Program-made: the position numbers and the translations under genes
Notes under the pieces: generated by a model
The model's input: only the letters and a program-made list of their open reading frames with translations
Told to the model about the DNA's origin: nothing
The model's database searches: none
NCBI GenBank assembly: GCA_902765855.1
Contig: CACXBF010000004.1
Location: 20,649-84,648, forward strand
Source of the DNA: an uncultured Ruminococcus sp.
Lineage (GTDB): Bacteria > Bacillota > Clostridia > Oscillospirales > Acutalibacteraceae
Reading direction: 5' to 3'
DNA: 64,000 nt
Part shown: in pieces, positions 3,858 to 64,000 of the stretch
How the letters are laid out: every line of letters starts with the position of its first letter
Numbering within the stretch: the stretch's first letter is position 1

Positions 3858-4050
3858 GTTGGTGAAACTACCGATAAGCTAACAGACTTTTCTAAGACAG
3901 ATAAAAGTTTTGCACAAACTTTTTTTAAAAGCTTGCGGTTTTCAAAGGTAGTCACCTACGGCGGAGCCTTTGGTGGTTTTTAAGGGCAATATCTCTTTTC
4001 TTCTCAAGCGGTGGACGAAATCCATCGCTTAATACTTTTGTTAGCAACCA
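3858..4050. repeat. Modular intergenic repeat, locus A
   Basis: Contains the arm CTAAGACAGATAAAAGTTTT, a degraded AAGCTTTT/AAAAGCTTG hairpin, the CAAAGG...CCTTTGG cassette carrying an extra TAGTCACCTA hairpin (shared with the locus at 50.9 kb), a degenerate AAGGGC element and the GCGGTGGACGAAATCCATCGC hairpin split. It sits between converging genes. Confidence 0.8.
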
Positions 4051-4091
4051 ACTGCCAAGTGAACAAACACAGTATGTCTTTATACCTAACT

Positions 4092-4130
4092 CAAAATAAA
4101 CAGGCAACCATTAGTAATATGGTTGCCTGT
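4092..4130 (-). terminator. Terminator of the ftsK transcript
   Basis: Read on the minus strand: ACAGGCAACCAT, loop ATTACTA, ATGGTTGCCTG, then TTTATTTT. It lies 24 bases after the ftsK stop codon. Confidence 0.85.
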
Positions 4131-4153
4131 AATGCTATGTATAATTTTTAAAA

Positions 4154-7009
4154 TCAATTTTCATCAGGTTTATTCATTTGTCGCTCCATATATTGTTGTT
4201 GCGTAAGAAGTACCTGTCTTGGCTTTGAACCCTCATGAGGGCCGACAATTCCCATTGTTTCCATTTCATCAATAAGTCGTCCGGCTCTCGCATATCCAAG
4301 ACGAAGCCTTCTTTGCAAAAGTGAGGTTGAGGCCTGTCCGGCTTCAACTACACACTTAATTGCCTCTTCAAGCATAGGGTCTTGGTCAGAATCCTCATTT
4401 GAAATAGGTTTGGTATTGTTATTTTCAATTATGGCATTGTTTTCAATTTCTTGAGCAATGCTTTCATCATATTCACAAGCTCTGTTATTTTTGATAAACT
4501 CTACAACTTTTTCGACTTCTTCGTCATCTACAAAACAGCCTTGAACACGCTTTGGCTTTGAAGCTCCGATAGGTGCAAAAAGCATATCACCTCTGCCGAG
4601 AAGCTTATCGGCACCGCCTGAATCGAGAATAGTTCTTGAGTCTATCTGTGATTTAACTGCAAAAGCAATTCGGCTTGGAATGTTAGCTTTAATAATACCG
4701 GTAATGACATCGACAGATGGTCTTTGTGTCGCAATGACAAGGTGCATACCGGCGGCACGAGCCATTTGTGCAAGTCGGCAGATAGCGTTTTCTACATCAT
4801 TAGGAGCAGCCATCATAAGGTCAGCAAGCTCATCAATAATTATAACAATTTGCTCAAGCTTTTTAAGCTTTTCTTTCTTAGGAGCTTTTCCGCTATTTTC
4901 TGTTTCTGAAATAGCAGCGTCCATAATTTGTCGTTCTTCAGGAGTTTGCGGCATTTCAAATTCGTCTGAATTTTCATCATCGTTTATTTGAGTTTCCTCT
5001 TTGTCGATTTCAGCGTTCGTTCTTTCAACAAGTGCATTATAACCTCTTATATCACGAACATTATTTTCAGCAAAGAGCTTATATCTTTCAAGCATATGAT
5101 TTACAGCCCAGTTCAATGCACCCGCCGCTTTTCTTGGGTCAGTAACAACCGGTACAAGTAAGTGCGGAATACCATTATAAACTCCAAGCTCAACAACCTT
5201 AGGGTCAATCATAAGCAATTTAACCTCATCCGGAGTTGATTTATAAATTAAGCTTATAAGCATAGAGTTTATACATACCGATTTACCCGAACCGGTAGAA
5301 CCGGCTATAAGCAGATGAGGCATTTTAGCGAGGTCAGCAATAGTAATATTCCCCTCAATATCTCTGCCAAGCACAACAGTAAGCTTACTTTTAGCATTGT
5401 TAAATTCAGGCGATTCTATCAATTCACGCATTTTAACAACGCTTACTACCTTGTTAGCAACCTCAACACCAACGGCGGCTTTTCCTGGGATAGGTGCTTC
5501 AATTCTTACACCGACAGCGGCAAGATTCATAGCAATGTCATCAGCAAGATTTGTGATTTTACTGATTTTAACACCAGCGGCAGGCTGAAGTTCATATCTT
5601 GTTACAGCAGGACCGCGACAGATGTTTACTATACTTGCCTTAACGCCAAAGCTCGCAAGAGTTTCTATAAGCATAGAACCATTTTGGTTTAGTTCCGTTG
5701 CAATATCGCCCTCATTTGTAAATGGGGTTGGTTTCAGAAGGGTTATAGGCGGTTTGAGATAAACACTATCATTTGATAAATATTCAGAAGAATCATTTTG
5801 TATATCAAAGCTTATAGCTTCTTCATCAGTTCTTTTCTTACCTTTTTTCTTTTCAATCTGTTTTAAAGCATCAGCGATAGTTTTGTTATCATTTTCTGAA
5901 AGAATACCGTCTAATTCTTCAAAAGAGCCTGATTCATAGTTTTCATCAGTAGTTGGTTCTGATGTTGTATTATATACTTCTTTTTGAGTAGGTTCATAAA
6001 TAATAGGCTCTGAGTTATTTTGATTTTCTATATTAGGATTAGACTTTTTGCGTTTTTTACGCTTTTGAGATGTTATCGGTGGAGTATCATAATCATTTGC
6101 ATTAAAGTTATTAGAGCGTTTAGGGATATACTGCTCACTGATAAAATCATCAGGTAACATATTAGGTTTTCCCGAATCATTTCCAAGAGGTATATCTATA
6201 TGATTTTTTTTCGATTCATCAGCTCTTCTTCCATAAATATAGAATGAGTGTTTTTCTTGCTTTTGTGCTTGTTGATATTCTTGACGGACAGCCCTTTGTT
6301 TACTGATTTCCTGTTTCTTTTCAGAAACCTTAGATGAAACCTTGGAAGAAACTTTCTCCACAGGCTTTTTGAAGAAATCAACAAAACCTATAATTGTCGC
6401 ACCGGAGGCAATCATAATATCTATAAAAAGTAAAACGGCTATTATAATTCGAGAACCTGTTGCACCAAGAAATGCCATCATAGGAGCACCAAGGAGAGAG
6501 CTGAGAAGTCCACCTCCACGATAATTCATACCCTCTGTATAAGCGTCGCCCATTGCGAAAAAGACATTTTTTTCAACATTGCCGTGCGAGAAAAGATATA
6601 CAGCAGTTGTGAAAAGTACAGCTATTGATATTGCAATAAAAAATCTTAATTTCATTCTATATGGGAGAGCAGTTTTTCCGCTTTGGTATGCAATATATAT
6701 TATAACAATGGGAATAAATATTCCGCATATACCGAAAAGTCCCCAGATAAATGAATGTATAGTTGTCCAGAACATATCACCGCGAATTATGAATAAGCAG
6801 AATATTAAAATAGCAATACCTGATATTATGATAGACCTTATACGCCTACGTCGTCTGTCGTCGGCTTCAAGTTCAGCTTGGATTTTTTCTTTTTCAGCCT
6901 TGGTCATTCTTTTAGTTTTGGATTTCGTGGTTTGAGTTGCTTTTGCATTTGTATTTTTATTGCTCGATGAAGCTTTTTTAGTCGGATTTTTTTTAGAATC
7001 ATTTGCCAA
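4154..7009 (-). CDS. ftsK: FtsK/SpoIIIE DNA translocase
   Basis: Septum-located ATPase that pumps chromosomal DNA into the daughter cell or forespore. From the N-terminus: a basic tail, four to five membrane segments (about residues 58-213), a long charged linker, and the motor with Walker [10 protein letters not shown] (about 568), Walker [10 protein letters not shown] (about 726) and [20 protein letters not shown] winged-helix gamma domain (about 880-940, [20 protein letters not shown]) reads polar DNA motifs. The TTG start is supported by AGGAGGT seven bases upstream. About 60 mostly charged residues are inserted in the motor before Walker B, longer than in Bacillus SpoIIIE. Downstream of tepA and uppP, as tepA neighbours spoIIIE in Bacillus. 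Confidence 0.95.
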
Positions 7010-10689: not shown

Positions 10690-11203
10690 ATGTGATAAAT
10701 TGATAAATTTCCCTAAAACAATTAAGAGGTTCACTCTTTTTAATAATATTGCTAACAAAAGAAAAACGGCGGATTTTATCCGCCGTTCAAAGAGCAAAGA
10801 ATGTTAAGGGCGTTGCCCTTAAAACCCACGAGGGACTCCGTCCCTCGACCCTGCAAGCTTTTGAAAAAGCTTGAGCAAAACTTTTAGCTGTTTTTAGGAA
10901 ATTGGTTAGTTAATCGGCAGTTCATTGGGAATTTCCTCGACCGCGTCAACTATTTTATCTAATCAACTACGAGCGAGACTTGTCGAGCGATTCCGTGTCT
11001 TGTCCTGTGCGGTCACGCACCGCGTCTTGACAGCGGCGGCACGCCGCTTTGAGCAAAACTTTTAAGTGTCTTTAGGAAATTGGTTAGTTAATCGGCAGTT
11101 CATTGGGAATTTCCTCGACCGCGTCAACTATCTTATCTAATCAACTACGAGCGAGACTTGTCGAGCGATTCCGCGTCTTGTCCTGTGCGGTCACGCACCG
11201 CTT
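10690..11203. repeat. Modular intergenic repeat, locus B (partly tandem)
   Basis: Order: an AACGGCGGAT/ATCCGCCGTT hairpin, AAGGGCGTTGCCCTT, GAGGGACTCCGTCCCTC, the AAGCTTTT/AAAAGCTT hairpin, the arm ending GTTTTTAGG, then GGTTAGTTAATCGGCAGTTC and the ACTACGAGCGAGACTTGTCG segment. The last part, from the arm to the GTGCGGTCACGCAC hairpin, is present twice (about 10885-11035 and 11055-11203), nearly identical. It abuts the znuB stop codon and fills the whole gap up to the lexA operon promoter. Confidence 0.85.
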
Positions 11204-15311: not shown

Positions 15312-15454
15312 AAATCATCACTCCAAATAAAATGTTTATGCACAATTTGAAATATTTCATTGTGCAATTAAGAATTACTTCTTCCTATTATATAAATTAT
15401 TAAAGTAATTATATTTCTTAATTAGAATAAAGAGAAAAATAAATTGTAAAATTT

Positions 15455-15745
15455 AGCGGCGAGCCGCCGCCCCCAAGACGCGGAATCGCTCGACAAGTCT
15501 CGCTCGTGGTGAATACAAGAAGTTTTTCCACGCGGAGGATTAAATTACCGCTTGACTGATGCACTTCTTTTAGACACTTAAAAGTTTTGCTCAAGCTTTT
15601 TCAAAAGCTTGCAGGGTTGAGGGACGGAATCTCTCATAGGTTTCAACGCCCTTAACTTTTCTTTGCCCTCTAAGTGGAGGACTTAGTCCGCCACTTGATT
15701 TCTTTTGTTAGTAAAGTCGAATAGCGAACCATTTTAAGTGAAGTG
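15455..15745. repeat. Modular intergenic repeat, locus C
   Basis: Order: GCGGCGAGCCGCCGC, CCCAAGACGCGGAATCGCTC with the inverted GACAAGTCTCGCTCG segment, an arm with GACACTTAAAAGTTTTGCTC, CAAGCTTTTTCAAAAGCTTG, a decayed GAGGGACGGAATCTCTC cassette and GGCGGACT-like elements. The stretch 15312-15454 upstream of it holds only AT-rich DNA where the CNNM gene promoter must lie; I could not fix its hexamers. 15745-15813 shows nothing. Confidence 0.8.
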
Positions 15746-30414: not shown

Positions 30415-30710
30415 TTCCTAAGAAAAACATTCCACTAGAATATTTTTATACCTTCCTAAGCTTTGAGAGGTATAAAATGTTTCGCCGCCTGTGGACGGCA
30501 ACCAAAGGCTTGACCTAAATTTTAAATGTCTTAAAGAAATTGTTTAACAAATCGTAGGGGCGAACTATGTTCACCCATTCGGTAGTTTAGACCTCTGTGT
30601 GGGTAAACTTCATATACTCACTACGAGCGAGACTTGTCGAGCGATTCCTCATCTTGGGAGCGGCGGCTCGTCGCCTTGAACTAACTTTTAAGTATCTTAG
30701 AAAATTTGAT
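30415..30710. repeat. Modular intergenic repeat, locus D
   Basis: A worn copy: AACATTCCACTAGAATAT hairpin remnant, GCCGCCTGTGGACGGC, GGCTTGACCTAAATTTTAAA arm, GGGGCGAACTATGTTCACCC with a stem G-to-A change, the ACTACGAGCGAGACTTGTCG segment, GGAGCGGCGGCTCGTCGCC, and a final arm ending AAGTATCTTAG. It fills the gap to the HAD gene promoter. Confidence 0.75.
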
Positions 30711-32889: not shown

Positions 32890-32919
32890 AGTAAGTGTGT
32901 TGACATAGATAAAGAAACT

Positions 32920-33107
32920 GTCAATTAGCTAACAAACTTTCCTAAGACAATTAAAAGTTTTGCTCAAGCTTTTTCAAAAGCTTGCAGGGTCGAGGGACGG
33001 AGTCCCTCGTGGGTTTTAAGGGCAAAGCCCTTAACATTCCTTTCTTTCAAGGGCGGACGTAGTCCGCCCTAATCGGTAGTTCATTGGTAATTTCTGCATT
33101 AGCTACC
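32920..33107. repeat. Modular intergenic repeat, locus E
   Basis: A clean example: AATTAGCTAACAAACTTTCC, arm CTAAGACAATTAAAAGTTTT, CAAGCTTTTTCAAAAGCTTG, GAGGGACGGAGTCCCTC, AAGGGCAAAGCCCTT, GGGCGGACGTAGTCCGCCC, then ATCGGTAGTTCATTGG. All four hairpins are perfect. It lies between converging genes. Confidence 0.88.
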
Positions 33108-34270: not shown

Positions 34271-34450
34271 CAGGTTAAGGACTTTGCCCTAAATTTTAAG
34301 TAGAGACAAACTGTTTTCGCCCGTTCGGTAGCTCATTGGAAATTTAGTCAACTGCGTCAACAATCTTTCCTAATTCATTACGAGCGAGGCTTGCTGCAGG
34401 TCGTCACCTGACGCAATTCCGCGTCTTGAGAGCGGCGGCTCGCCGCTTGA
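34271..34450. repeat. Modular intergenic repeat, locus F
   Basis: AAACTGTTTTCGCCCGTTCGGTAGCTC, then the CTGCGTCAACAATC segment, ACGAGCGAGGCTTGC carrying an extra GCAGGTCGTCACCTG insert, and GAGCGGCGGCTCGCCGC. It fills most of the divergent gap between the DUF421 gene and gerA; it ends about 20 bases before the gerA start, so the gerA promoter must lie inside or at the edge of the repeat. Confidence 0.78.
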
Positions 34451-44249: not shown

Positions 44250-44866
44250 AGCTAACCAACTTCCCAAAAGACACTTTAGCGGTCGCACTTCCCAAAGACA
44301 GCCAAAAGTTTTGCTCAAGGCGGCGAGCCGCCGCTCCCAAGACGCGGAATCGCTCGGCTTTGCCTCGTTCGGTGTGGATAAAAGAAATTTGTTGACGCGG
44401 TCGGGGAAACTACCGGGGGGCGAACACAGTTCGCCCATACAATTAGCTGATATACTTATCTAAGACAGATAAAAGTTTTGCTCAAGCTTTTTTAAAAGCT
44501 TGCGGATTCCAAAGGCGGAGCCTTTGGTGGGTTTTAAGGGCGAAGCCCTTAACATTCTTTGCTCCTATTAGCGGTGGACTTTGTCCGCCGCTAATTTCTT
44601 TTGTCAGTAACATTAGTCAAAAATTACGGACAAAGTCCGCAATTAGATAGCAAGAAAAGTTAAGGGCGTTGCCCTTAAGCGGCGAGCCGCCGCACCCAAG
44701 ACGCAGAATCGGTTTTGCAAGCAAAACCTCGACATTCGCAATAGAAGTTTGTTGATGCGGTCGAAGAAATTTCCAATGGACTACCTAGAGGGCGGACTCC
44801 GTCCCTCAACCCTGCAAGCCTTTAAAAAGGCTTGACCTAAACTTTAAGTGTCTTAGAGAAGTCTGT
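44250..44866. repeat. Modular intergenic repeat, locus G (largest, compound)
   Basis: Starts AATTAGCTAACCAACTTCCC; then GCGGCGAGCCGCCGC, CCCAAGACGCGGAATCGCTC, GGGCGAACACAGTTCGCCC, arm CTAAGACAGATAAAAGTTTT, AAGCTTTTTTAAAAGCTT, CCAAAGGCGGAGCCTTTGG, AAGGGCGAAGCCCTT, GCGGTGGACTTTGTCCGCCGC, GCGGACAAAGTCCGC, AAGGGCGTTGCCCTT, a second GCGGCGAGCCGCCGC, GGGCGGACTCCGTCCCTC and a closing arm GGCTTGACCTAAACTTTAAG ending in GTCTTAG. It looks like two elements, one entering the other. Fills the gap between converging genes. Confidence 0.88.
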
Positions 44867-44875
44867 AAATATAGA

Positions 44876-47276: not shown

Positions 47277-47322
47277 ATATCAAAAAATATCGCTTTGATA
47301 TAGCTTTAGGTTATATCAAATT

Positions 47323-47815
47323 AAAAGTTTCGCTCGAGCCTTTTCAAAGGCTCGTAGGTCAAGGGCAACGCCCTTGTCGCTCTCCGCAGAGAGCGAAATA
47401 CTTTATGCTCTAAAAGCGCAGGAGGGTAGAAAAACATTCCGGTGGAATGTTTTTCGTAGGGAACCCTCGCAGGGGGTTCCCTGTAAGACTAATGTTACTA
47501 ACAAGAGAGAATTTAGCGGTGGACAAAGTCCACCGCTTTGGAAGTAAAGAAATGTTAAGGGCGTTGCCCTTAAAACCCACCAAAGGCTCCGCCTTTGGAA
47601 ACCGCAAGCCTTTGAAAAGGCTTGACCTAAACTTTTATCTGTCTTGAGGAAGTGCGTTAGTTAATTGTAAGGGCGAACTGTGTTCGCCCGCTTGGTAATT
47701 TTTTCGACCGCGTCAATTAACTTCCCTTGTTCACTACGAGCGAGACTTGTCGAGCGATTCCGCGTCTTGACCGCGGCGGCACGCCGCCTTTACCTAAACT
47801 TTAATTGTCTAAGAT
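47323..47815. repeat. Modular intergenic repeat, locus H
   Basis: Left arm TTAAAAGTTTCGCTCGAGCC, AAGGGCAACGCCCTT, CGCTCTCCGCAGAGAGCG, ACATTCCGGTGGAATGT, GGAACCCTCGCAGGGGGTTCC written as its two halves GGAACCC/GGGTTCC, AGCGGTGGACAAAGTCCACC, AAGGGCGTTGCCCTT, CCAAAGGCTCCGCCTTTGG, arm GGCTTGACCTAAACTTTTAT, GGGCGAACTGTGTTCGCCC, ACTACGAGCGAGACTTGTCG and GCGGCGGCACGCCGC. Two cassettes (CATTCC and GAACCC) are unique to this locus. It lies between diverging genes whose promoters flank it. Confidence 0.86.
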
Positions 47816-47858
47816 TAGTACATAAGTTAATATTAAATAACAGCGATTTAATATTAGC

Positions 47859-50932: not shown

Positions 50933-50938
50933 TCTTAG

Positions 50939-51389
50939 CGAACTCACTTCCTCCAAGACCTTAAAAGTTTTGCTCAAGCTTTTTCAAAAGCTTGCAGTTT
51001 CCAAAGGTAGTCACCTATGGCAGAGCCTTTGGTCGCTCTCCGCAGAGAGCGAAATACTTTTGGGCGAAGCCCAACATTTGTTTTTTTCTTAGGCGAACGC
51101 AGTTCGCCTTTATCAACTAATGTTGCTAATAAGAGAAAATTAAGCGGTGGACTCTGTCCACCGCTTTAGAATCAAAAAGCCTTTAAAAAGGCTTGACCTA
51201 AATTTTCAGTTGTCTTAGAAAAATCTGTCAGCTAATCGTAGGGGCGAACTGTGTTCGCCCGCTCGGTAGTTTCTTCGCCCGCGTCAATCAACTTTCCTTA
51301 ATCCACAACGAGCGAGACTTGTCGAGCGATTCCGCGTCTTGACCGCGGCGGCACGCCGCCTTGACCTAAACTTTAGCAGTCTTAGGAAA
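50939..51389. repeat. Modular intergenic repeat, locus I
   Basis: Left arm CTTAAAAGTTTTGCTCAAGC, AAGCTTTTTCAAAAGCTT, CCAAAGG...CCTTTGG with the TAGTCACCTA insert, CGCTCTCCGCAGAGAGCG, GGCGAACGCAGTTCGCC, AAGCGGTGGACTCTGTCC, arm GGCTTGACCTAAATTTTCAG, GGGCGAACTGTGTTCGCCC, ACGAGCGAGACTTGTCGAGC, GCGGCGGCACGCCGC and a second closing arm. It fills the gap between converging serA and the Rrf2 gene and abuts the latter's stop codon. Confidence 0.86.
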
Positions 51390-51394
51390 GCTGG

Positions 51395-51847: not shown

Positions 51848-51902
51848 AAAGAACACGCTCCTTTAAAAATTTTATTTAATTACATACGAAACATATAATA
51901 AT

Positions 51903-52057: not shown

Positions 52058-52098
52058 TGGAAGCACTTCAAGGTTTGTTGAAAAGGGTTGGTGATATT

Positions 52099-53346: not shown

Positions 53347-53404
53347 CATTTTATAAATAAAGTTTAGTTCAAGGGAGAGAATCCCTTGCAAGGAGGAGTA
53401 ACAA

Positions 53405-54821: not shown

Positions 54822-54837
54822 GTAGGAGAGATAATTA

Positions 54838-55855: not shown

Positions 55856-56265
55856 TTAAGCTATCAAAATCAGATTACGAAAAAATTCTTGCACACGCAG
55901 AAAAAGAACTTCCCAATGAGGCTTGTGGTTTGATTGCAGGTACAGTTGAAAACGGTGATAAGATAATAAAGGAAGTTTATCTTCTCACAAATATAGACCA
56001 TTCCAATGAGCATTTTACACTTGACCCAAAAGAACAGCTTGCCGCAATCAAGGATATGAGAAGTAAAGGCTATGTACCGCTTGGCAACTGGCATTCTCAC
56101 CCAGAGTCGCCATCAAGACCTTCGGAAGAGGATAAAAGACTTGCCTATGACAGCAAAGCAAGCTATATGATTTTATCTCTTATGAATAGAGCTGAGCCTG
56201 TATTAAATTCATTCAAAATCACTGGAGATACCGCAAAAAAAGAAGAACTCATAATAGAGGATTAA
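55852..56265 (+). CDS. JAMM/Mpn+ metalloprotease, HcyD-like
   Basis: A 137-residue zinc peptidase of the Mec/JAB1 type. The metal site is GNWHSHPESPSRPSEEDKR (HxH, seven residues, Ser, two residues, Asp), and the catalytic Glu is in LPNEACGLIAG. It is expected to trim the Gln tail of the ThiS-like carrier or to release its product. Translation is coupled to the adenylyltransferase gene by a 4-base overlap. Confidence 0.92.
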   Translation: MIKLSKSDYEKILAHAEKELPNEACGLIAGTVENGDKIIKEVYLLTNIDHSNEHFTLDPKEQLAAIKDMRSKGYVPLGNWHSHPESPSRPSEEDKRLAYDSKASYMILSLMNRAEPVLNSFKITGDTAKKEELIIED

Positions 56266-56273
56266 GAATAAAC

Positions 56274-56475
56274 CTTCCATAAGACACTCAAAGTTTAGGT
56301 CAAGCCTTTTTAAAGGCTTGCGGTTTCCAAAGGCAGAGCCTTTGGTAGGTTTTAAGGGCAAAGCCCTTAACATTCTTTGCACTCTAAGTGCGGACAAAGT
56401 CCGCACTTAATAACTAATGTTGTTAACAAAAGAAAAAAGGCTCAAGCGAAACTTTTAAGGTTCTTGGGAAAGTGC
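56274..56475. repeat. Modular intergenic repeat, locus J (inside the sulfur cluster)
   Basis: A compact whole element: left arm AAGACACTCAAAGTTTAGG, AAGCC/GGCTT hairpin, CCAAAGGCAGAGCCTTTGG, AAGGGCAAAGCCCTT, GTGCGGACAAAGTCCGCAC, and right arm GGCTCAAGCGAAACTTTTAA ending in TTCTTGG. It separates the first seven from the last four genes of the cluster; both sides are plus strand and no promoter is evident between the repeat and aprA. Confidence 0.88.
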
Positions 56476-56503
56476 GGTAGTTTCAAAAAATGAGGGAAGC
56501 AAT

Positions 56504-58183
56504 ATGAAGACAGAAAAGCTTACAACAGATATTCTGATTATAGGCGGCGGAACAGCAGGTTGCTATGCGGCTTTGACAATATCCGAAAATTCCGATAAAA
56601 AAGTTATAATCTGCGAAAAGGCACATATAAAGAGAAGTGGTTGCCTTGCAGCTGGTGTAAACGCTCTTAACGCATATATCACAGAGGGCAGAACGCCTCA
56701 GGACTATGTTGATTACGCAAAGCACGATGCAGATGGCATAGTAAGAGAAGATTTGCTCCTTACAATGTCCGAAAGACTTAATTCCGTTACACATAGGCTT
56801 GAACAGCTCGGACTTGTAATTCTCAAGGACGAAAACGGCAAGTATGTAACACGAGGAAACCGCAATCTTAAAATAAATGGTGAAAACATAAAGCCGATAC
56901 TCGCTAAAGCAGTAGAAGCCTTGCCAAATACAACTATTCTCAATAGAGTAAATGTAATCGACTTTGCCGTCAAGGATAACAGAATCCAGGGAGCTTTTGG
57001 AATAGGCATAGATGATGATACTTTCTATACTATTGAGGCTAAGGCAGTAATAATTGCCACAGGTGGTGCGGCAGGACTTTATAAGCCAAATAATCCAGGT
57101 TTTTCACGCCATAAAATGTGGTATCCGCCATTCAATACAGGTGCAGGCTATGCAATGGGAATAAAGGCCGGTGCAGAAATGACCACTTTTGAAATGCGTT
57201 TCATAGCTTTAAGATGTAAAGATACGATTGCCCCAACAGGTACTCTTGCACAGGGTGTCGGAGCTAAACAAGTAAATTCACTTGGAGAAGTTTATGAAAC
57301 AAAATATGGCTTAACTACTTCCGAGAGAGTTTATGGCACAGTCAATGAGAATCAAGAGGGCAGAGGTCCTTGCTATCTCAGAACAGAGGGCATTACGCCC
57401 GAACAGGACGAATCCTTGCTAAAAGCATATTTGAATATGGCTCCTTCACAAACTATCAAGTGGATAGAGAGTGGAAAAAATCCATCTCAGCAGAATGTTG
57501 AAATCGAGGGTACAGAGCCTTACATAGTAGGCGGACACACAGCAAGTGGCTATTGGGTTGATACAAAGAGAGCAACCACAATAAATGGCTTGTTTGCAGG
57601 CGGTGATGTTGCCGGCGGTGCTCCGCAGAAATATGTCACAGGTGCTTTGGCAGAAGGTGAGATTGCAGCCCTTTCCGCAGTTGAATATGTTTCCGAAAAT
57701 GATATTTCACCTATCGAGAGTAGTAATATAGACAGCCACATTTCAGAGGTTGAAAACTTTCTTACCAAAAAGGATTCCCACTTTACAACAGAACAGCTTG
57801 AAGAGGCTATGCAGAGTGTTATGGATTCTTATGCAGGTGGTATTAAAACAAATTATCGTTTTAATGAGAAACAGCTTGATATTGCAGACTATAAGATTAA
57901 ACAGCTCACAGAGCTTTCAAATTCGCTTTACGCAGAAGATTTTCAGGAACTTATGTATATCTATGAACTTCGTGAAAGACTTACAGTTTGCAGAAGTGTT
58001 ATAGCACATCTCAAAGCAAGAAAAGAAACCCGTTGGCATAGCTTTGCAGAAAATCTTGATTATCCGAATAAGGACGATAAGAATTTTAATAAATATGTCA
58101 ATTCACGCTTTGAAAACGGCGAAATAAAAATAATCCTTCGTGATTTAGTACCGGGAGGTAAGAGCTATGAGCATAGCAATTAA
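56504..58183 (+). CDS. aprA: Adenylylsulfate reductase alpha-type flavoprotein
   Basis: A 559-residue FAD protein of the fumarate reductase/AprA family. FAD-binding DILIIGGGTAGCYAALTI starts it, with AVIIATGGAAGLYKPNN, YAMGIKAGAEMTTFEMRF and GLFAGGDVAGGAPQKYVTGA following. It is shorter than the dissimilatory enzyme (about 650 residues). With the ferredoxin subunit downstream and ATP sulfurylase next, it should reduce adenylylsulfate to sulfite plus AMP; succinate or aspartate oxidation is less likely given the context. GAGGGAAG precedes the ATG. Confidence 0.88.
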   Translation: MKTEKLTTDILIIGGGTAGCYAALTISENSDKKVIICEKAHIKRSGCLAAGVNALNAYITEGRTPQDYVDYAKHDADGIVREDLLLTMSERLNSVTHRLEQLGLVILKDENGKYVTRGNRNLKINGENIKPILAKAVEALPNTTILNRVNVIDFAVKDNRIQGAFGIGIDDDTFYTIEAKAVIIATGGAAGLYKPNNPGFSRHKMWYPPFNTGAGYAMGIKAGAEMTTFEMRFIALRCKDTIAPTGTLAQGVGAKQVNSLGEVYETKYGLTTSERVYGTVNENQEGRGPCYLRTEGITPEQDESLLKAYLNMAPSQTIKWIESGKNPSQQNVEIEGTEPYIVGGHTASGYWVDTKRATTINGLFAGGDVAGGAPQKYVTGALAEGEIAALSAVEYVSENDISPIESSNIDSHISEVENFLTKKDSHFTTEQLEEAMQSVMDSYAGGIKTNYRFNEKQLDIADYKIKQLTELSNSLYAEDFQELMYIYELRERLTVCRSVIAHLKARKETRWHSFAENLDYPNKDDKNFNKYVNSRFENGEIKIILRDLVPGGKSYEHSN

Positions 58184-58481
58184 CAAACAAAAATGCGTTG
58201 GTTGTGGAAGATGCCGAAATGTCTGTCCCGGAAGTCTTATCAAAATAGATGAGAGCGGTAAGGCATATATCAAGTATCCAAAGGATTGCTGGGGCTGTAC
58301 CTCTTGCATTAAGGAATGTCCCGTACACGCAATAAATTTTTATCTCGGTGCGGATATAGGCGGTATGGGCAGTATGGTTCATACCGAAAAGAACGGAGAT
58401 ATTCTAAGCTGGATAATAGAAAAACCTCAGGGCGATACCATTAAGATAGATATAAACCAAAGGGAATCAAATAAGTATTAA
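58167..58481 (+). CDS. aprB: Adenylylsulfate reductase beta-type ferredoxin subunit
   Basis: A 104-residue protein with two 4Fe-4S motifs, CVGCGRCRNVCPG and CWGCTSCIKECPV, which would pass electrons to the flavin of the alpha subunit. The C-terminal tail is shorter than in dissimilatory AprB. It overlaps the alpha gene by 17 bases and has GGGAGGT upstream. A 12-base gap separates it from cysD. Confidence 0.9.
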   Translation: MSIAINKQKCVGCGRCRNVCPGSLIKIDESGKAYIKYPKDCWGCTSCIKECPVHAINFYLGADIGGMGSMVHTEKNGDILSWIIEKPQGDTIKIDINQRESNKY

Positions 58482-58493
58482 GGAGAGAAGAAA

Positions 58494-59393
58494 ATGAGTG
58501 AACTTTCAAACCTTGACGAACTCGAAGCAGAAGCTATATACATCATCAGAGAAGTAGCAGCCGAATGTGAAAAGCCGGTAATGCTTTATTCAATAGGAAA
58601 AGATAGCTCCGTAATGCTTCATCTTGCTATGAAAGCGTTTTATCCCGAAAAACCTCCTTTTCCTTTTATGCACATAGATACAACATGGAAGTTTAAGGAT
58701 ATGATTAAATTCCGTGATGAAACAGCCAAGAAACTCGGTATAGAAATGATAGTCTATACAAATGAAGACGGAGTTAAGCAGGGAATAAACCCATTTGACC
58801 ACGGAGCAGCTTATACTGATATTATGAAAACTCAGGCTCTCAAGCAGGCACTTACCAAATACGGCTTTACAGCAGCATTCGGTGGCGGTAGGCGTGACGA
58901 GGAAAAGTCGAGAGCAAAGGAAAGAATTTTCTCTTTCAGAAATGAAGCTCAGGCATGGGACCCAAAAAATCAGCGTCCTGAAATGTGGAAACTCTATAAT
59001 ACAAAGATTAAAAAGGGCGAGAGCATAAGAGTTTTCCCAATCTCAAACTGGACAGAAAAAGATATATGGCAGTATATCAAGCGTGAAAATATAGATATAG
59101 TTCCTCTTTATTTTGCGGCTGAACGCCCTGTTGTAGAGCGTGACGGCAACATCATAATGGTTGATGATGACCGTTTCCCACTCAAAGAGGGAGAAGTTCC
59201 GCAAATGAAGTCAGTTCGTTTCAGAACACTTGGTTGCTATCCGCTTACAGGCGGTATAGAATCCACTGCAACTACACTCGATGAAATCATTGATGAAACT
59301 CTAAGCTCAGTATCCTCAGAGCGTACATCAAGAGTTATCGATAATGAGGCGGCAGGAAGTATGGAGCGTAGAAAAAGGGAGGGCTATTTCTAA
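58494..59393 (+). CDS. cysD: Sulfate adenylyltransferase small subunit
   Basis: A 299-residue PP-loop ATP pyrophosphatase that makes adenylylsulfate from ATP and sulfate with CysN. The PP-loop is [19 protein letters not shown]; further conserved parts are [32 protein letters not shown] and [15 protein letters not shown]. The end ERRKREGYF is typical. AAGGAGAG precedes the ATG, and its stop overlaps the start of cysN by one base. Confidence 0.97.
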
Positions 59394-61081
59394 TGAAAGG
59401 ATTACTTAAATTTATAACCTGCGGAAGTGTTGATGACGGAAAATCAACACTTATCGGACATATATTATATGATGCAAAGTTGATTTATGCTGACCAGGAA
59501 AAAGCTCTTGAGCTTGATAGTAAGGTTGGCAGCCGAAACGGTGCAATAGACTATTCGCTTCTCCTTGATGGACTTATGGCAGAGCGTGAGCAAGGTATTA
59601 CAATAGATGTTGCTTATCGTTATTTTACAACAGATAACAGAAGCTTTATAGTTGCCGATACCCCAGGCCACGAAGAATATACAAGAAATATGGCAGTAGG
59701 TGCGTCCTTTGCAGATTTAGCCGTTATCCTTGTTGACGCTTCACAAGGCGTTCTTATTCAGACAAGGCGTCACGCAAGAATCTGCAAACTTATGGGTATT
59801 CGTTACTTTGTCTTTGCCGTAAATAAGATGGATTTAGTCGGTTACAGCAAGGAACGCTTTGATGAAATCGTAAAGCAGATTGATGAGCTTAAAGAAGAAC
59901 TTAAACTTGATAATGTAAAAATTATTCCTTTGTCAGCAACAGAGGGCGATAATGTCACCACCAAGTCCGAAAATATCAAGTGGTATGACGGAGTTCCGCT
60001 TTTAGAGTATCTCGAAACTGTTGATATATCCTCATCAGATGAGGAAAAAGGTTTCTATATGCCGGTTCAGAGAGTCTGCCGTCCGGACCATACATTCAGA
60101 GGTTTTCAGGGACAAATTGAAGCAGGAAGTATAAGCGTAGGCGACGAGATTGTTGCATTGCCAAGCAACGAAAAGGCAAATGTCAAGAGCGTTTTTGTTA
60201 CAGACAAAGAGGTAAAATCAGCACATAAAGGCCAACCTGTAACAATAACCTTAGATAAAGAGGTTGATGTTTCAAGAGGCTGTGTGCTTTCAAAAAATGC
60301 TGATATTGCAGTATATAAAAAGCTCAAGGTTTCACTTCTTTGGATGGACGATGAACCACTCGTTATCGGCAAGGATTATCTTGTCAAGCTTGGCACAAAG
60401 ACTATTTCAGGCATTATTACAGCCGTTGATTATGCAGTTAATGTAAATACAGGCGAGCATATCAAGACAGAAACTCTCGAAAAGAATGGTATAGCTGTTT
60501 GCGAAATTCTCCTCACAGAAGCTATTGTTGCAGACCTTTTCTCCGCACATAAAACACTCGGAGAAATTATTCTCATTGATAGAGTTACCAATATGACATC
60601 AGCTTGCGGTGTTGTTGAGAATGTCAGCCAAAAGGCAGTTTCAGGTTCAGCAAAGGCATCATTCAAGCTTGGCGATGTTGAAGCAAGAGGCGATATATTT
60701 GAGGAATTCTACTATGATACATCAAGCCTTAATGTTTTGAAGTATCAGCCGGTAAGAAACACCTATACAGTCGGCGATGAAATTCCTGTTGACGGTGAAA
60801 GCTACCATTATCCGGATAGCTTTGATATAATCGTACTTCGTGACCAAGTAGCTATTAGCGTAAGAGATAAGAAAATCACAGCTATTATTCCTGCGAGCGA
60901 GTATGAATATAGCGGTTTCCCTGTTATAAATGGACGAGGCTTTGAGGTTGTCGCAGACAGTAATGAAGCTGTACAAGACTTCCTTAAAGAATACAATTCT
61001 CTTGCAGATAGCAACGACCCACAATTCTTTGCTAAGTGGATTAAGTTCAATACTTATCGTAAGATTATAATTAAAGCCTAA
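59393..61081 (+). CDS. cysN: Sulfate adenylyltransferase large subunit (GTPase)
   Basis: A 562-residue elongation-factor-like GTPase whose hydrolysis drives sulfate activation. G1 is GSVDDGKSTLIGHILYD, switch II is ADTPGHEEYTRNMAVGA, G4 is AVNKMDLVGYSK, followed by beta-barrel domains II and III (about residues 230-420). About 130 extra residues at the C-terminus (from about 430) do not look like a CysC APS kinase: no Walker A is present. So the pathway stops at adenylylsulfate, which agrees with the AprAB-type reductase. Confidence 0.95.
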   Translation: MKGLLKFITCGSVDDGKSTLIGHILYDAKLIYADQEKALELDSKVGSRNGAIDYSLLLDGLMAEREQGITIDVAYRYFTTDNRSFIVADTPGHEEYTRNMAVGASFADLAVILVDASQGVLIQTRRHARICKLMGIRYFVFAVNKMDLVGYSKERFDEIVKQIDELKEELKLDNVKIIPLSATEGDNVTTKSENIKWYDGVPLLEYLETVDISSSDEEKGFYMPVQRVCRPDHTFRGFQGQIEAGSISVGDEIVALPSNEKANVKSVFVTDKEVKSAHKGQPVTITLDKEVDVSRGCVLSKNADIAVYKKLKVSLLWMDDEPLVIGKDYLVKLGTKTISGIITAVDYAVNVNTGEHIKTETLEKNGIAVCEILLTEAIVADLFSAHKTLGEIILIDRVTNMTSACGVVENVSQKAVSGSAKASFKLGDVEARGDIFEEFYYDTSSLNVLKYQPVRNTYTVGDEIPVDGESYHYPDSFDIIVLRDQVAISVRDKKITAIIPASEYEYSGFPVINGRGFEVVADSNEAVQDFLKEYNSLADSNDPQFFAKWIKFNTYRKIIIKA

Positions 61082-61088
61082 ATTTATT

Positions 61089-61131
61089 AACAGCCTAAGT
61101 CAAAAATAGACTAAGGCTGTTTACTTTTTTA
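61089..61131 (+). terminator. Terminator of the sulfur cluster
   Basis: AACAGCCTAAGTC and GACTAAGGCTGTT (one mismatch), then TACTTTTTTATTT. Confidence 0.85.
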
Positions 61132-61159
61132 TTTAAAAAGTATATAATATAGCTAATAT

Positions 61160-61622
61160 ACTTCTTTAAGATACTTAAAAGTTTTGCTCAAGCTTTTTTA
61201 AAAGCTTGCAGTTTCCAAAGGCAGAGCCTTTGGTCGCTCTCCGCAGAGAGCGAAACACCTTTGGGCGAAGACCAACATTAGTCAATAAAGGCGAACGAAG
61301 TTCGCCCTCTCGGTAGTTTCAACGACCGCGGCAACAATCTACTTTTACTTACTACGAGCGAGACTTGTCGAGCGATTCCGCGTCTCGGGAGCGGCGGCTC
61401 GCCGCTTTAAAAAGGCTTGACCTAAACTTTTAAGTATCTTAGAGCAAGTGCATTAGCTAAGCGTAGGAGCGAACGAAGTTCGCCCTTTCGGTAGTTTCAA
61501 CGACCGTGGCAACAATCTGCTCTTACTCACTACGAGCGAGACTTGTCGAGCGATTCCGCGTCTCGGGAGCGGCGGCTCGCCGCTTTGAAAAGGCTCGAGC
61601 GAAACTTTTAATTTTCTTGGGA
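61160..61622. repeat. Modular intergenic repeat, locus K (tandem)
   Basis: The left arm AAGATACTTAAAAGTTTTGC (61168) and right arm ending TTTTAAGTATCTT (61440) form a 26-base inverted pair enclosing AAGCTTTTTTAAAAGCTT, CCAAAGGCAGAGCCTTTGG, CGCTCTCCGCAGAGAGCG, GGCGAACGAAGTTCGCC, ACTACGAGCGAGACTTGTCG and GAGCGGCGGCTCGCCGC. The second half (GCGAACGAAGTTCGCC to GCGGCTCGCCGC) is then repeated almost exactly at 61470-61585, closing with a worn arm. It fills the gap between cysN and the flavodoxin gene. Confidence 0.88.
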
Positions 61623-61653
61623 AAGTCTATAAAATAATTTGGAGGAATCTAAA

Positions 61654-62130
61654 ATGAGTAAAAAATTAGTAGCGTATTTTTCTGCAAGTGGTGTAACTGC
61701 AAAGTTGGCAAAAAGACTTGCTAATGCAGTAGATGCTGATATTTTCGAGATAAAGCCCGAAAAACCATATACCACCGCAGACCTTGACTGGACAAATAAG
61801 AAAAGCCGTTCAAGCGTAGAGATGAGCGATAAGAGCTTCAGACCTGCTGTTGCCGAAAAGCTTGATAATATCGCAGATTATGATACTATTTATGTAGGAT
61901 TTCCGATATGGTGGTATGTTGCCCCTACAATTATAAATACATTTCTTGAGCAGTACGATTTAACAGGCAAAACAATTATACCTTTCGCAACCTCAGGCAC
62001 AAGCCCTATGGGAAAGACAAATTCAGAGCTTGCACCATCTTGCAAGGGTGCAATTTTGAAAGAGGGCAAGCGTTTTGAAGCAAATGCTGACGAAGCAGAA
62101 CTCAAAAAGTGGGCAGATAGTATCCGTTAG
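61654..62130 (+). CDS. Flavodoxin
   Basis: A 158-residue FMN-binding electron carrier. The phosphate-binding loop is in YFSASGVTAKLAKRLAN, the isoalloxazine region in YVGFPIWWYVAPTIINTFL, and the second loop in FATSGTSPMGKTN. The type resembles Flavodoxin_4 proteins of gut Firmicutes. GGAGG lies seven bases before ATG 61654; the upstream in-frame TTG overlaps it. Repeat locus K directly precedes it, so its promoter is either within that repeat or is shared with the sulfur cluster by read-through. Confidence 0.92.
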   Translation: MSKKLVAYFSASGVTAKLAKRLANAVDADIFEIKPEKPYTTADLDWTNKKSRSSVEMSDKSFRPAVAEKLDNIADYDTIYVGFPIWWYVAPTIINTFLEQYDLTGKTIIPFATSGTSPMGKTNSELAPSCKGAILKEGKRFEANADEAELKKWADSIR

Positions 62131-62141
62131 GAGTTGAAATA

Positions 62142-62816
62142 GTGTATCGAATCTTTATCGTTGAGGACGACCCTACAATGTCCATAGCAATGAAAAAGCA
62201 GATAGAGTTATGGGGTTATCAAGTAAAATGTGCGAAGAATTTCCAGAATATAATTTCAGAGTTTACAGAGTTTGACCCACAACTTGTATTGCTGGATATT
62301 ATGTTACCATTTTATAATGGTTATCATTGGTGCAGTGAAATAAGAAAAATCTCAAAAGTCCCGATTATGTTCATATCCTCAGCATCAGATAATATGAATA
62401 TCGTAATGGCTATGAATATGGGCGGAGATGATTTCATTGCTAAGCCTTTTGATTTAAATGTTCTCACAGCCAAGATACAGGCGATTCTAAGAAGAACCTA
62501 TGATTTCTCAGGAAATATTTCTGTCTTAGAGCATAAGGGTGCGATACTCAACCTTAATGATATGACGCTGACATTTAAAAATAATAAGCTTGAATTAACA
62601 AAAAATGAATTTCGTATTCTTCAAATGCTTATGGAGAATAAGGGTAAAACTGTAAGCCGAAATTCTCTTATGGTTCGTTTGTGGGAAAGCGATATATATG
62701 TTGAAGAAAATACTCTTTCCGTAAATATAAATCGTTTGAGAAAAAAACTTGATTCTATCGGTTTGAATGATTTTATTCGTACAAAATCAGGCAGTGGATA
62801 TATAATCGGTTCATAA
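62142..62816 (+). CDS. OmpR/PhoB-type response regulator, BceR-like
   Basis: A 224-residue regulator. Receiver domain: IFIVEDDPTMSIAMKKQIEL with the acidic pair, the phosphorylated Asp in PQLVLLDIMLPFYNGY and the Lys in GDDFIAKPFD. The C-terminal winged helix (about 125-222; FRILQMLMENKGKTVSRNSL) binds DNA. GTG start preceded by GAGTTGAA. It is followed after one base by its kinase. Confidence 0.93.
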   Translation: MYRIFIVEDDPTMSIAMKKQIELWGYQVKCAKNFQNIISEFTEFDPQLVLLDIMLPFYNGYHWCSEIRKISKVPIMFISSASDNMNIVMAMNMGGDDFIAKPFDLNVLTAKIQAILRRTYDFSGNISVLEHKGAILNLNDMTLTFKNNKLELTKNEFRILQMLMENKGKTVSRNSLMVRLWESDIYVEENTLSVNINRLRKKLDSIGLNDFIRTKSGSGYIIGS

Positions 62817-62826
62817 GGTGAAGTCT

Positions 62827-63810
62827 ATGAAAAAAAGCTTTTTTAAGATACTATTTCGCTACCTGCACCAATATCGTTTGATACTTATTTTCTTTGCTGT
62901 ATTTATAGTAACATTTATAAGTGTATTTTTTGCATATGGAGTTTCATTAGAACCAATTTTTTATGCGTCTATGCTTTATCTTATATTCAGCTTGATTTTT
63001 TTAACTGCTAATTTTATTCCGTTTTATAGGAAACATTGTCAGCTTGAAGAAATTCGCAAGAATATAGATGTACTTATAAATGATTTGCCCGAACCGAAAA
63101 ATCAGATAGAGGAAGATTATAGTAATATGCTAAAGGCACTTTGGCATATTTATACGGACGAGCATAATCAATCGCAAATTAAGCAAAAAGAAAGTATAGA
63201 GTATTATACAACATGGGTTCATCAGATAAAAACGCCAATTTCAGCTATGCGTCTTTTCTTGCAAACAGAAGATACAGAGCAAAATGCCATGCTTTTAACA
63301 GAACTTTTCAGAATAGAGCAATATGTAGAAATGGTATTATGCTATTTCAGAACGGATAGTTCATCAAGCGACTTTGTTTTCAAGGAATATTCGCTTGATA
63401 GCATTATCCGACAAGCCATAAGAAAATATGCACCGCAATTTGTGAGAAAGCGAATAAGGCTTATATATGACGGCACAACTGAAAGAATAGTAACAGATGA
63501 GAAATGGCTCTTATTTGTTATAGAACAGATACTTTCAAATGCGATTAAATATACCACAAAGGGCAGTGTCACAATAGCTGTAAATGACGGAATAATTTCT
63601 ATTTCAGATACAGGAATAGGCATATCCGAAGAAGATTTGCCAAGAATATTCGAGAAAGGCTTTACAGGTTATAATGGCAGAGCTGATAAAAAATCCACTG
63701 GTTTAGGCTTATACTTATGTAAGAGGATTACAGATAAGCTTTCTAATGAAATATCTGTTAAATCCGAGGTTGGCAAAGGCACAACTGTAATTATTAAAAC
63801 AACTGTTTAG
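62827..63810 (+). CDS. Sensor histidine kinase, BceS-like
   Basis: A 327-residue kinase with two closely spaced helices (about residues 13-35 and 40-62) and almost no extracellular loop, the hallmark of intramembrane-sensing kinases. The phosphorylated His is in TWVHQIKTPISAMRLFL; the ATPase domain has EQILSNAIKYTTKG, ISDTGIGISEEDLPRIFEKG and STGLGLYLCK. Such kinases usually sense antimicrobial peptides through a BceAB-type ABC transporter, which would be expected beyond the window. ATG 62827 has AAGGTGA upstream. Confidence 0.92.
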   Translation: MKKSFFKILFRYLHQYRLILIFFAVFIVTFISVFFAYGVSLEPIFYASMLYLIFSLIFLTANFIPFYRKHCQLEEIRKNIDVLINDLPEPKNQIEEDYSNMLKALWHIYTDEHNQSQIKQKESIEYYTTWVHQIKTPISAMRLFLQTEDTEQNAMLLTELFRIEQYVEMVLCYFRTDSSSSDFVFKEYSLDSIIRQAIRKYAPQFVRKRIRLIYDGTTERIVTDEKWLLFVIEQILSNAIKYTTKGSVTIAVNDGIISISDTGIGISEEDLPRIFEKGFTGYNGRADKKSTGLGLYLCKRITDKLSNEISVKSEVGKGTTVIIKTTV

Positions 63811-63811
63811 C

Positions 63812-64000
63812 TAAGCGGCAAGCCTCCGTTCACAAGACACTCAAAATTTAGGTCAAGCCTTTGAAAAGGCTCGAGCGAAACTTTTATTTGTCTTAGAAAA
63901 GTCAGTCAACAAATTGTAGAAATAAACTGTGTTTGCCCGTTCGGTAGTTACTTCGACCGCGGCAACCATCTTCCATCACTTACTACGAGCGAGGCAAAAC
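63812..64000. repeat. Modular intergenic repeat, locus L (runs off the window)
   Basis: Begins with the minimal form: the two arms (63834-63894) directly joined through the AAGCCTTTGAAAAGGCTC hairpin with no inner cassettes, then AACTGTGTTTGCCCGTTCGG, a decayed GGGCGAAC cassette, the CGACCGCGGCAACC segment and ACTACGAGCGAGGC up to the window end. Confidence 0.82.

What the first reader, a model, noticed from the sequence alone, without database searches (positions are those of the whole stretch)
3858..64000. A family of modular hairpin repeats at twelve intergenic loci with conserved stems and free loops
Twelve loci (3.9, 10.7, 15.5, 30.4, 32.9, 34.3, 44.3, 47.3, 50.9, 56.3, 61.2 and 63.8 kb) are mosaics of the same short palindromic cassettes: GAGGGAC/GTCCCTC, CCAAAGGC/GCCTTTGG, AAGGGC/GCCCTT, GCGGAC/GTCCGC, GGGCGAAC/GTTCGCCC, CGCTCTC/GAGAGCG, GCGGCGAGCCGCCGC and AAGCTTTT/AAAAGCTT. 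Loops change between copies (GGAC with TTT, AAA, TTA, GTA or TCT then GTCC; GGGC with GTT, AAA, GAA or AAC then GCCC) while the stems stay. That is selection, or copying, at the level of structure. Cassette order is similar but cassettes are gained and lost. They take up about 6% of the window, sit only between genes, and occur in converging, diverging and same-strand gaps. I know of no name for this family.
Basis: seen in the sequence. Interest (0 to 1): 0.8.

Follow-up and report, generated by a model that had tools for sequence, protein, structure and literature searches.

The report
Shuffling hairpin repeats between gut-bacterium genes
Between the genes of a relative of the gut bacterium Pseudoruminococcus massiliensis lie mosaics of short DNA palindromes whose stems are swapped and whose loops sometimes flip, most likely a REP-like repeat system reshaped by DNA copying rather than a set of RNA genes.

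Summary
In detail: 12 repeat runs, 3,873 bases, 6.05% of the window, none overlapping the ORFs. The genome is a close relative of Pseudoruminococcus massiliensis (about 92% identity). The repeats form a roughly ordered element: CH1, CH2, CH3, CH4, optional CH5, core, CH6. Rfam has no match.

Stems covary strongly but without favouring wobble. Against P. massiliensis, changed pairs are two-sided in 47 of 65 cases in family hairpins (17 of 34 without the swapped CH3 stems) and 2 of 33 in other hairpins. Five of seven differing CH1/CH5 loops are exact reverse complements, 0 of 17 in CH2/CH3. I read this as cassette exchange plus some template switching, not RNA selection.

CH5 is a GTAG-tagged REP. 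P. massiliensis has a RAYT-like transposase gene, absent from the window's genome, with two inverted CH5 REPs inside its reading frame. A covariance model finds the CH2-CH3-CH4 trio in 15 of 79 genomes searched, own included; I checked sequences in four others. New variant of REP/BIME mosaics. What moves the large element is unknown.

The parts
3857..4048 (-). run 1: CH4, CH3 with a nested hairpin insert, degenerate CH2, CH1 (reverse orientation); converging gap
10737..11201 (+). run 2: CH1-CH2-CH3-CH4, then core units repeated with a 178-bp period; same-strand gap
15447..15714 (-). run 3: CH6, core, CH4, CH3, partial CH2, CH1; about 111 bp with CH6 and core have no counterpart in P. massiliensis; same-strand gap
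30417..30708 (+). run 4: partial element with imperfect CH5, core, CH6; the syntenic 28-bp gap of P. massiliensis has no repeat; same-strand gap
32893..33073 (-). run 5: CH4-CH3(GAGGGAC)-CH2-CH1; CH3 is CCAAAGGC in P. massiliensis with near-identical flanks; converging gap
34325..34446 (+). run 6: core part with a nested CAGGTCGTCACCTG hairpin, and CH6; diverging gap
44284..44869 (.). run 7: composite in both orientations with CH5, CH1 and several CH2, CH3, CH4, CH6 copies; converging gap
47318..47830 (+). run 8: fullest copy; CH1 47515-47537, CH2 47555-47573, CH3 47580-47598, CH4 47605-47624, CH5 47671-47689, core 47737-47762, CH6 47773-47787; preceded by an inverted part with the CGCTCTC hairpin 47377-47396; diverging gap
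50934..51390 (.). run 9: inverted left half, then CH1, CH4, CH5 with GTAG tag (51238-51260), core, CH6; converging gap; a separate terminator-like hairpin lies before it at 50897-50929
56267..56438 (-). run 10: CH4-CH3-CH2-CH1; P. massiliensis has extra repeat sequence here; same-strand gap
61150..61638 (.). run 11: inverted left part, then two tandem 178-bp units, each with a CH5-like hairpin, core and CH6; same-strand gap
63854..63995 (+). run 12: CH4, degenerate CH5, start of the core; cut by the window end

Best explanation
The loci are mosaics of non-autonomous palindromic repeats (REP/BIME-like). A larger, roughly ordered element (CH1-CH2-CH3-CH4, a GTAG-containing slot, core, CH6, sometimes in inverted pairs) was spread between genes, probably in an ancestor. 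Smaller hairpins, among them the GTAG-tagged REP CH5, were inserted into it. In P. massiliensis a RAYT-like HUH transposase that carries two CH5 REPs inside its own reading frame is the likely mobiliser of CH5; the window's genome lacks it. Afterwards the copies change by copying at the DNA level: exchange of whole hairpin cassettes between dispersed copies, gain and loss of units, and, at least at CH1/CH5, replication template switching that flips the loop and can equalise the arms. Shown here: order, slot states, stem swaps, two-sided changes, loop flips, the transposase gene with internal REPs and its presence/absence. Inferred: that the transposase moves CH5, that template switching is the mutational step, that the large element is non-autonomous. 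What first moved the large element is unknown.
For: 12 runs and 6.05% of the window. Of 82 oriented CH2 copies 70 are followed by a CH3 type, 55 preceded by a CH1-type hairpin; 58 distinct ones have CH2, a CH3-type slot and a CH4-like arm in order. The slot between TTAGCTAAT and TCGACCGCG exists empty (CGGTAGTTTCT), with an 11-nt addition, with the 27-nt GTAG REP, or with a different GTAG-flanked hairpin. Syntenic repeat-bearing gaps: 29 of 40 in both genomes, 4 only in the window's genome, 7 only in P. massiliensis (the sample favours sites with the core in P. massiliensis, and in 4 of the 7 the aligned blocks overlap, so those are rough). CH3 stem swaps at orthologous sites. Pairs changed on both sides 47, one side 18 in 94 equal-length family hairpins; 2 and 31 in 33 non-family ones (Fisher 2e-10; without CH3 17 and 17, 8e-5). 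Exact reverse-complement loops: 5 of 7 differing CH1/CH5 loops, 0 of 17 in CH2/CH3 (Fisher 0.0005), 0 of 33 non-family; random pairing of copies gives 20% among differing CH1/CH5 loops (P 0.005). GTAG hairpin in 24 of 295 genomes of the order, own included; RAYT-like hits in 11 of 12 carriers and 6 of 17 non-carriers, both sets hand-picked by me. RAYT gene with both REPs in frame, and the empty 485-bp site in the window's genome. PDB match of that protein: TnpArep 4er8, E 1.4e-5. Runs in 28 of 49 converging, 64 of 212 same-strand, 13 of 74 diverging gaps (p 1.8e-5), like the REP preference in the abstract of PMC3733652. Template switching gives arm homogenisation and spacer inversion (PMC8604942, abstract) and multibase compensatory changes (PMC8794818, abstract).
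Against: The window's genome has no RAYT found: its only intact Y1 transposase is an IS200 TnpA. Only 7 of 19 GGCGAAC hairpins in the sample carry an exact GTAG tag and I saw no such tag on CH2, CH3 or CH4, so RAYT movement does not explain the main element. All RAYT-like hits are below the curated cut-off of 80 bits, and 6 of 17 non-carriers have one too. Two-sided changes come mostly from CH3 swaps (30 of 47); CH2 has 0 two-sided and 6 one-sided, so arm correction is not general. One of the five CH1/CH5 flips and the CH4 flip also differ in stem and flanks and may be replacements; the raw number of flips (5 of 22) is not far above random pairing (3.6). CH2 and CH3, with 8-bp stems, do not flip. 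No polarity was set for any presence/absence difference (no outgroup). CH1 in one orientation is followed by a T-run in 25 of 55 copies, which suits a host function.
Confidence: 0.55

Rival explanations
1. Structured RNA or 3'-end elements kept by selection: the hairpins terminate transcription or protect mRNA ends, so stems are kept while sequences drift.
For: Strong covariation. CH1 in orientation B is followed by a T-run in 25 of 55 copies against 1 of 55 in orientation A, 11.6% at control intergenic positions and 6.0% at positions inside runs. 30 terminator-like sites in 44001-64000 against 14.6 in shuffles, many in the runs. Converging gaps favoured. CH2 stem columns 94-100% conserved against 46-91% in the immediate flanks.
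Against: Few wobble states: A1 has 133 two-sided cells, 9 wobble and 18 unpaired; A2 190, 6 and 11 (that alignment is fitted to the structure). G-T does not exceed A-C (17 against 29). In same-strand gaps orientation B runs with the genes in 27 and against them in 20 copies (p 0.38). Some runs lie in diverging gaps, and at 50.9 kb a separate terminator-like hairpin precedes the run.
Confidence: 0.2
2. Non-autonomous element of a lost DNA transposase (MITE-like): the TTAGCTAAC..CTAAGACA..AAAAGTTT ends are terminal inverted repeats. This overlaps with the best explanation.
For: One clean presence/absence site (sample C2 85154-85455, 300 bp in the window's genome, 0 in P. massiliensis) has inverted ends AACAGATTTTCTAAAGACAATTAAAAGT and AACTTATCTAAGACATCTAAAAGT. 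The outer segment recurs in 8 copies in the window (family D6).
Against: No target-site duplication seen at that site; several runs do not end there. No transposase family other than Y1 was searched for.
Confidence: 0.25
3. Chromosome-structuring or protein-binding sites (as proposed for E. coli REPs and gyrase, PMC3733652), kept for a DNA role.
For: Palindromic, mostly intergenic, many copies; the DNA-level pattern of change does not exclude a DNA-binding role.
Against: Very uneven density along contig C1: 0 to 2,816 run bases per 20 kb, none between 240 and 300 kb; presence differs between close relatives and among genera. No binding protein was looked for.
Confidence: 0.1

Closest known systems
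BIMEs and REP elements (Escherichia, Pseudomonas); GTAG-tagged REPs of Di Nocera et al. 2013 (PMC3733652)
   Same: Short palindromes with 2-4-nt loops and compensated stems, high copy number, mostly intergenic, preference for converging and same-strand gaps, grouped in mosaics; CH5 carries the GTAG tag; RAYT-like gene in the sister species.
   Different: Only CH5 and a few other inserts are GTAG-flanked; several different stems in slots of one larger element; no RAYT found in the window's genome; that paper's main text has no occurrence of Firmicutes, Clostridi or Ruminococc; it reports frequent G-T pairs, not favoured here.
REPINs and RAYTs (Bertels and Rainey 2011, PMC3116915; TnpAREP, PMC8266576; passages seen)
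   Same: The P. massiliensis RAYT-like gene holds two REPs inverted with GTAG tags outwards, the layout of a REPIN.
   Different: Here that pair lies inside the transposase reading frame, with the HUH motif encoded between them. In the mosaics no inverted tagged CH5 doublet within 400 nt was found (8 tagged in the G000 sample, no doublet; 19 in the P. massiliensis sample, two same-orientation doublets).
Small dispersed repeats of cyanobacteria (Elhai et al. 2008; paper not held; recalled)
   Same: Very short palindromic units inserted into other repeats, no evident transposase.
   Different: Different sequences and hosts; recalled only, not compared.
Hairpin-associated template-switch mutations (PMC8794818, PMC8604942; outline and abstract read)
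   Same: Arm homogenisation, multibase compensatory change and spacer inversion, as seen here at CH1/CH5.
   Different: Those studies concern RNA genes and yeast coding DNA, not a repeat family.

Membership tests
GTAG REP superfamily | unpaired GTAG at one end of a short palindrome (stems mostly 6-13 bp) | tested here: met
   CH5 only: 7 of 19 GGCGAAC hairpins with exact tag in the sample; slot states; definition in PMC3733652 section 5
GTAG REP superfamily | RAYT in the same genome | tested here: not met
   window's genome: none found; P. massiliensis has a 60.1-bit hit, below the cut-off of 80. [quoted passage not shown]
BIME | several palindromic units in both orientations with conserved linkers, intergenic | tested here: met
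   8 of 66 gaps hold CH2 in both orientations
CGTC REP superfamily | CGTC tag, 8-9-bp stem with A-T in the first two positions, 4-5-nt loop, short CCA tail | tested here: not met
   CH6 follows CGTC but its stem is GCGGCG with 3-nt loops against the definition in PMC3733652 section 6
REPIN | two inverted REPs with a spacer as the unit | tested here: not met
   for the mosaics: no inverted tagged CH5 doublet within 400 nt in the samples; such a pair exists inside RAYT-like genes
IS200/IS605-derived palindromic elements | hairpin ends like those of the resident IS200 | tested here: not met
   by eye only: the IS200 copies have other end hairpins
MITE | terminal inverted repeats and target-site duplication | tested here: inconclusive
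   one site with inverted ends, no duplication seen
Any Rfam RNA family | match at or above the gathering score | tested here: not met
   (only a tRNA in the window; none in L182, L183, L188); at E up to 5 over 47250-47860: two weak hits far below gathering

The most novel reading that the evidence does not exclude
In this order of gut Clostridia, RAYT-like genes carry an inverted GTAG-REP pair (a REPIN) inside their own reading frame, around the HUH-coding segment, with a stem type that differs between genomes but sits at two homologous places in the protein. Such genes seed REPs that become part of larger three-hairpin mosaics, shared across genera, in which stems turn over as whole cassettes and by template switching, so that strong covariation arises without selection on any RNA.
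Probability: 0.35. Interest if true: 0.75.

Novelty: new variant of a known kind. Interest (0 to 1): 0.6.

Why it matters
Covariation is taken as the best sign of a functional RNA. Here is a repeat family with strong covariation that looks largely produced by DNA copying: swapped cassettes, two-sided changes without favoured wobble, and flipped loops at orthologous sites, beside other hairpins in the same genomes as a control. It could let one measure hairpin template switching in bacteria. It also extends REP/RAYT biology to gut Clostridia, with transposase genes that encode REPs inside their own protein-coding sequence.

Tried and rejected
Ideas dropped. (1) RNA-only family: Rfam negative; wobble test not in favour. 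(2) IS200-derived ends: the ends differ by eye. (3) 'The sister species has no Y1 transposase', from the PF01797 search: wrong; the NCBIfam model found a RAYT-like gene. (4) 'Genus-only family', from exact or near-exact patterns (2 of 60 and 2 of 200 genomes, own included): wrong for the trio; the covariance model finds it in 15 of 79. The core 27-mer was seen only in the two close species (one search listed only P. massiliensis, records near the window being left out there). (5) CGTC REP: definition not met. (6) Terminator role judged by orientation: no bias. (7) Viral contigs: 0 matches of one trio pattern.

Limits. Of the 15 genomes with covariance hits I looked at sequences of G000, G001, G026, G022, G013 and G002; not at G010, G019, G032, G046, G048, G067, G327, G330, G336. 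Stretches fetched from G032 (3), G067 (2), G336 (1) and G019 (1) had no hit at E 0.001. A1 holds 52 of the 58 distinct oriented copies; I left out six with an indel or degenerate arm. (106 hairpins) is superseded (140, overlapping set); one search keeps only perfect stems of 7 or more with 25 of 35 flank bases matching on each side, and 11 families rows 'length differs' (13 hairpins in all) were set aside from loop and pair counts. The 872-kb sample is partly chosen for core matches; only C1 1-400000 and the window were not. One search's C1 stem-9 control was spoiled.

Papers. PMC3733652: abstract, sections 5, 6, 7, 16 and part 1 of 17, and a word search. PMC3116915, PMC6006769, PMC8266576, PMC8049555, PMC2817692, PMC8726730: word searches and passages only (the last and PMC2817692 gave no passage). 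PMC8794818, PMC8604942: outline and abstract. Elhai 2008 and doi 10.1093/gbe/evx146: not held. That no name was found, and that internal REPs in RAYT genes were not seen in print, rests on paper searches and those word searches in an open-licence library.
Full report
WHERE. The window is G000:C4:20649-84648 of a 2.39-Mb, 43-contig genome. A relative in the same genus, G001, is Pseudoruminococcus massiliensis Marseille-P3876 by its contig lengths; NCBI places it in Clostridia, Acutalibacteraceae. Fetched syntenic blocks average 91.9% identity over 311 kb. A third genome of the genus, G002, aligns at about 70-74%.

OBSERVATION. I compared an 872,650-base sample of the genome (window; 480 kb of contig C1; stretches of others, many picked because they carry the core) with itself. 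The window has exactly 12 runs, 3,873 bases, 6.05%, none overlapping an ORF. The hairpin excess over one Markov simulation is large for stems of 8 or more (57 against 16). Density is uneven: contig C1 has from 0 to 2,816 run bases per 20 kb. The names CH1-CH6 and 'core' are mine.

ANATOMY. Read in the direction of the core, the fullest copy (47.3 kb) is CH1 AGCGGTGGAC-NNN-GTCCACCGCT, CH2 TTAAGGGC-NNN-GCCCTTAA, linker AACCCA, CH3, CH4 CAAGCCTTT..AAAGGCTTG followed by ACCTAAACTTTT, a GTAG-containing slot with or without CH5, a core (ACGAGCGAGACTTGTCGAGCGATTCCG), and CH6. CH2 occurs in both orientations in 8 of 66 gaps that hold it. The core unit also occurs in tandem with a 178-bp period at 10.9 and 61.3 kb. 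Of 82 oriented CH2 copies, the next slot holds GAGGGAC in 45, CCAAAGGC in 25, the CH6 type in 10, other in 2; CH2 loops are GTT 36, TTT 24, TTC 19, others 3; a hairpin was found upstream in 60, with loops in both complementary states, and 55 of these are of CH1 type. CH2 stem columns are 94-100% conserved, immediate flanks 46-91%.

INSERTIONS. At the slot between TTAGCTAAT and TCGACCGCG I see CGGTAGTTTCT (empty), the same with 11 more bases, CG[TAGGGGCGAACTGTGTTCGCCCGCTCG]GTAGTTTCT, and another GTAG-flanked hairpin. Nested hairpins also sit inside CH3 and CH4 at orthologous sites where the other genome has none. In 40 syntenic gaps with repeats, 29 have them in both genomes, 4 only in G000, 7 only in P. 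massiliensis (the loci favour P. massiliensis sites with the core, and 4 of the 7 have overlapping alignment blocks). The 30.4-kb run is absent in P. massiliensis.

HOW HAIRPINS CHANGE. At 32.9 kb the flanks are nearly identical, yet CH3 is GAGGGAC in one species and CCAAAGGC in the other, and two loops differ. Over 140 orthologous hairpins (127 of equal length, 94 of them family), changed pairs are two-sided 47 and one-sided 18 times in family hairpins, 2 and 31 in the 33 non-family ones. Thirty of the 47 are CH3 swaps; without CH3 the family has 17 and 17; CH2 alone has 0 and 6. Loops that differ: CH1/CH5 7, of which 5 exact reverse complements; CH2 8 and CH3 9, none; non-family 7, none. Random pairing of CH1/CH5 loops among copies gives 20% reverse complements among differing pairs (chance of 5 or more of 7: 0.005), though the raw number, 5 of 22, is not far above the 3.6 of random pairing. 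One of the five flips comes with a changed stem and diverged flanks; another has one stem pair changed on both sides. Covariation: for CH2-CH3-CH4, 133 cells with both sides changed against 49.1 in shuffles (0 of 500 as high), 9 wobble cells, 18 unpaired; the number of pair types, 17, is below the shuffles' 21.0. For CH1, 28 distinct arm pairs, 29 cells against 5.5. Non-Watson-Crick cells: G-T 17, A-C 29 (p 0.10). A transcribed, selected RNA should tolerate G-U on one strand; this is not seen. Template switching predicts arm homogenisation and spacer inversion (PMC8604942, abstract) and multibase compensatory changes (PMC8794818, abstract). Whole-stem swaps fit exchange between dispersed copies. 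That CH2 and CH3 do not flip is unexplained; their stems are shorter.

TRANSPOSASE. PF01797 finds one intact IS200 TnpA and two remnants in G000. In P. massiliensis that search found nothing, but NCBIfam NF047646 finds a RAYT-like gene (60.1 bits; cut-off 80), a 157-aa frame; its PDB match is TnpArep 4er8, E 1.4e-5. The frame contains GTAGGGGCGAACTGTGTTCGCCCG (encoding VGANCVRP) and, inverted, the same hairpin (NGRTQFAP), on either side of the HUH motif PNHIHLI (the motif's name is recalled). The gene is a clean 485-bp presence in P. massiliensis against G000, and no RAYT was found in G000. Among 18 RAYT-like frames (17 of the 39 hits plus this gene), 7 have perfect hairpins at both homologous places, 3 at one, 8 at neither. 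GTAGGGGCGAACNNNGTTCGCCCG occurs in 24 of 295 genomes of the order, own included (Oscillospirales in GTDB, by recall). Of 12 of these carriers, hand-picked, 11 have a RAYT-like hit, and of 17 hand-picked non-carriers outside the genus 6 (Fisher 0.003). All hits are below the curated cut-off.

SPREAD. Near-exact patterns found the core in 2 of 60 and the CH2-CH3 block in 2 of 200 genomes, own included. A covariance model of CH2-CH3-CH4 finds matches in 15 of 79 genomes, 13 of 73 genera, own included. In G026 (E down to 7.7e-18) and G022 (1.2e-17) the slots and linkers are clear, with other stems; in G013 and G002 the CH3 and CH4 slots and linkers are recognisable. The remaining nine genomes were not looked at. 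Alignment A2 (50 matches: 42 from G026, 5 G022, 2 G013, 1 G002) has 190 cells changed on both sides, 6 wobble, 11 unpaired (fitted to the model). Rfam has nothing above gathering score.

HOST ROLE. Runs favour converging gaps (28 of 49) over same-strand (64 of 212) and diverging (13 of 74) ones (p 1.8e-5; crude ORF calls). CH1 in orientation B is followed by a T-run in 25 of 55 copies, in orientation A in 1 of 55; control 11.6%. Orientation relative to genes is not biased (27 against 20). A by-product as terminator is possible; a selected RNA role is not needed.

VERDICT. A real mosaic of palindromes, without a name in the searches made, seen in several genera; works like REP/BIME repeats, contains a GTAG-REP unit, and changes largely by DNA copying. 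New variant of a known kind. The mover of the large element is not known.

Noticed in passing
L135 1291-1764 (P. massiliensis G001:C16) and L136, L140, L145, L146, L147, L152: RAYT-like genes with an inverted pair of GTAG-REP hairpins inside the reading frame at two homologous protein positions.
   Followed up: partly
L135 1268-1752 against G000:C1 near 264.97 kb: The RAYT-like gene is a clean 485-bp presence/absence between what look like a methyltransferase gene and a queH-like gene (names by eye).
   Followed up: yes
L031 972-1481 (G000:C19); L032; L033: One intact IS200 tnpA and two remnants in the window's genome.
   Followed up: yes
L183 1560-2150 (G022): A tandem array of short CH4-like units (AAGCCTTTAAAAAGGCTTAACCTAAACCTAATTA) beside two CH2-CH3 copies.
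   Followed up: no
L145, L146, L147, L148 and others: Different genomes of the order have different GTAG-hairpin stems beside or inside RAYT-like genes (GGGCGACC, GGACGGCC, GGGCGATT and others).
   Followed up: partly
G000 contig C1, 240-300 kb: 60 kb without any repeat run in a contig that otherwise carries them; it includes what look by eye like ribosomal protein genes.
   Followed up: no
window 43602-44826: About 1.2 kb with an ORF next to run 7 is missing at the syntenic place in P. massiliensis.
   Followed up: no
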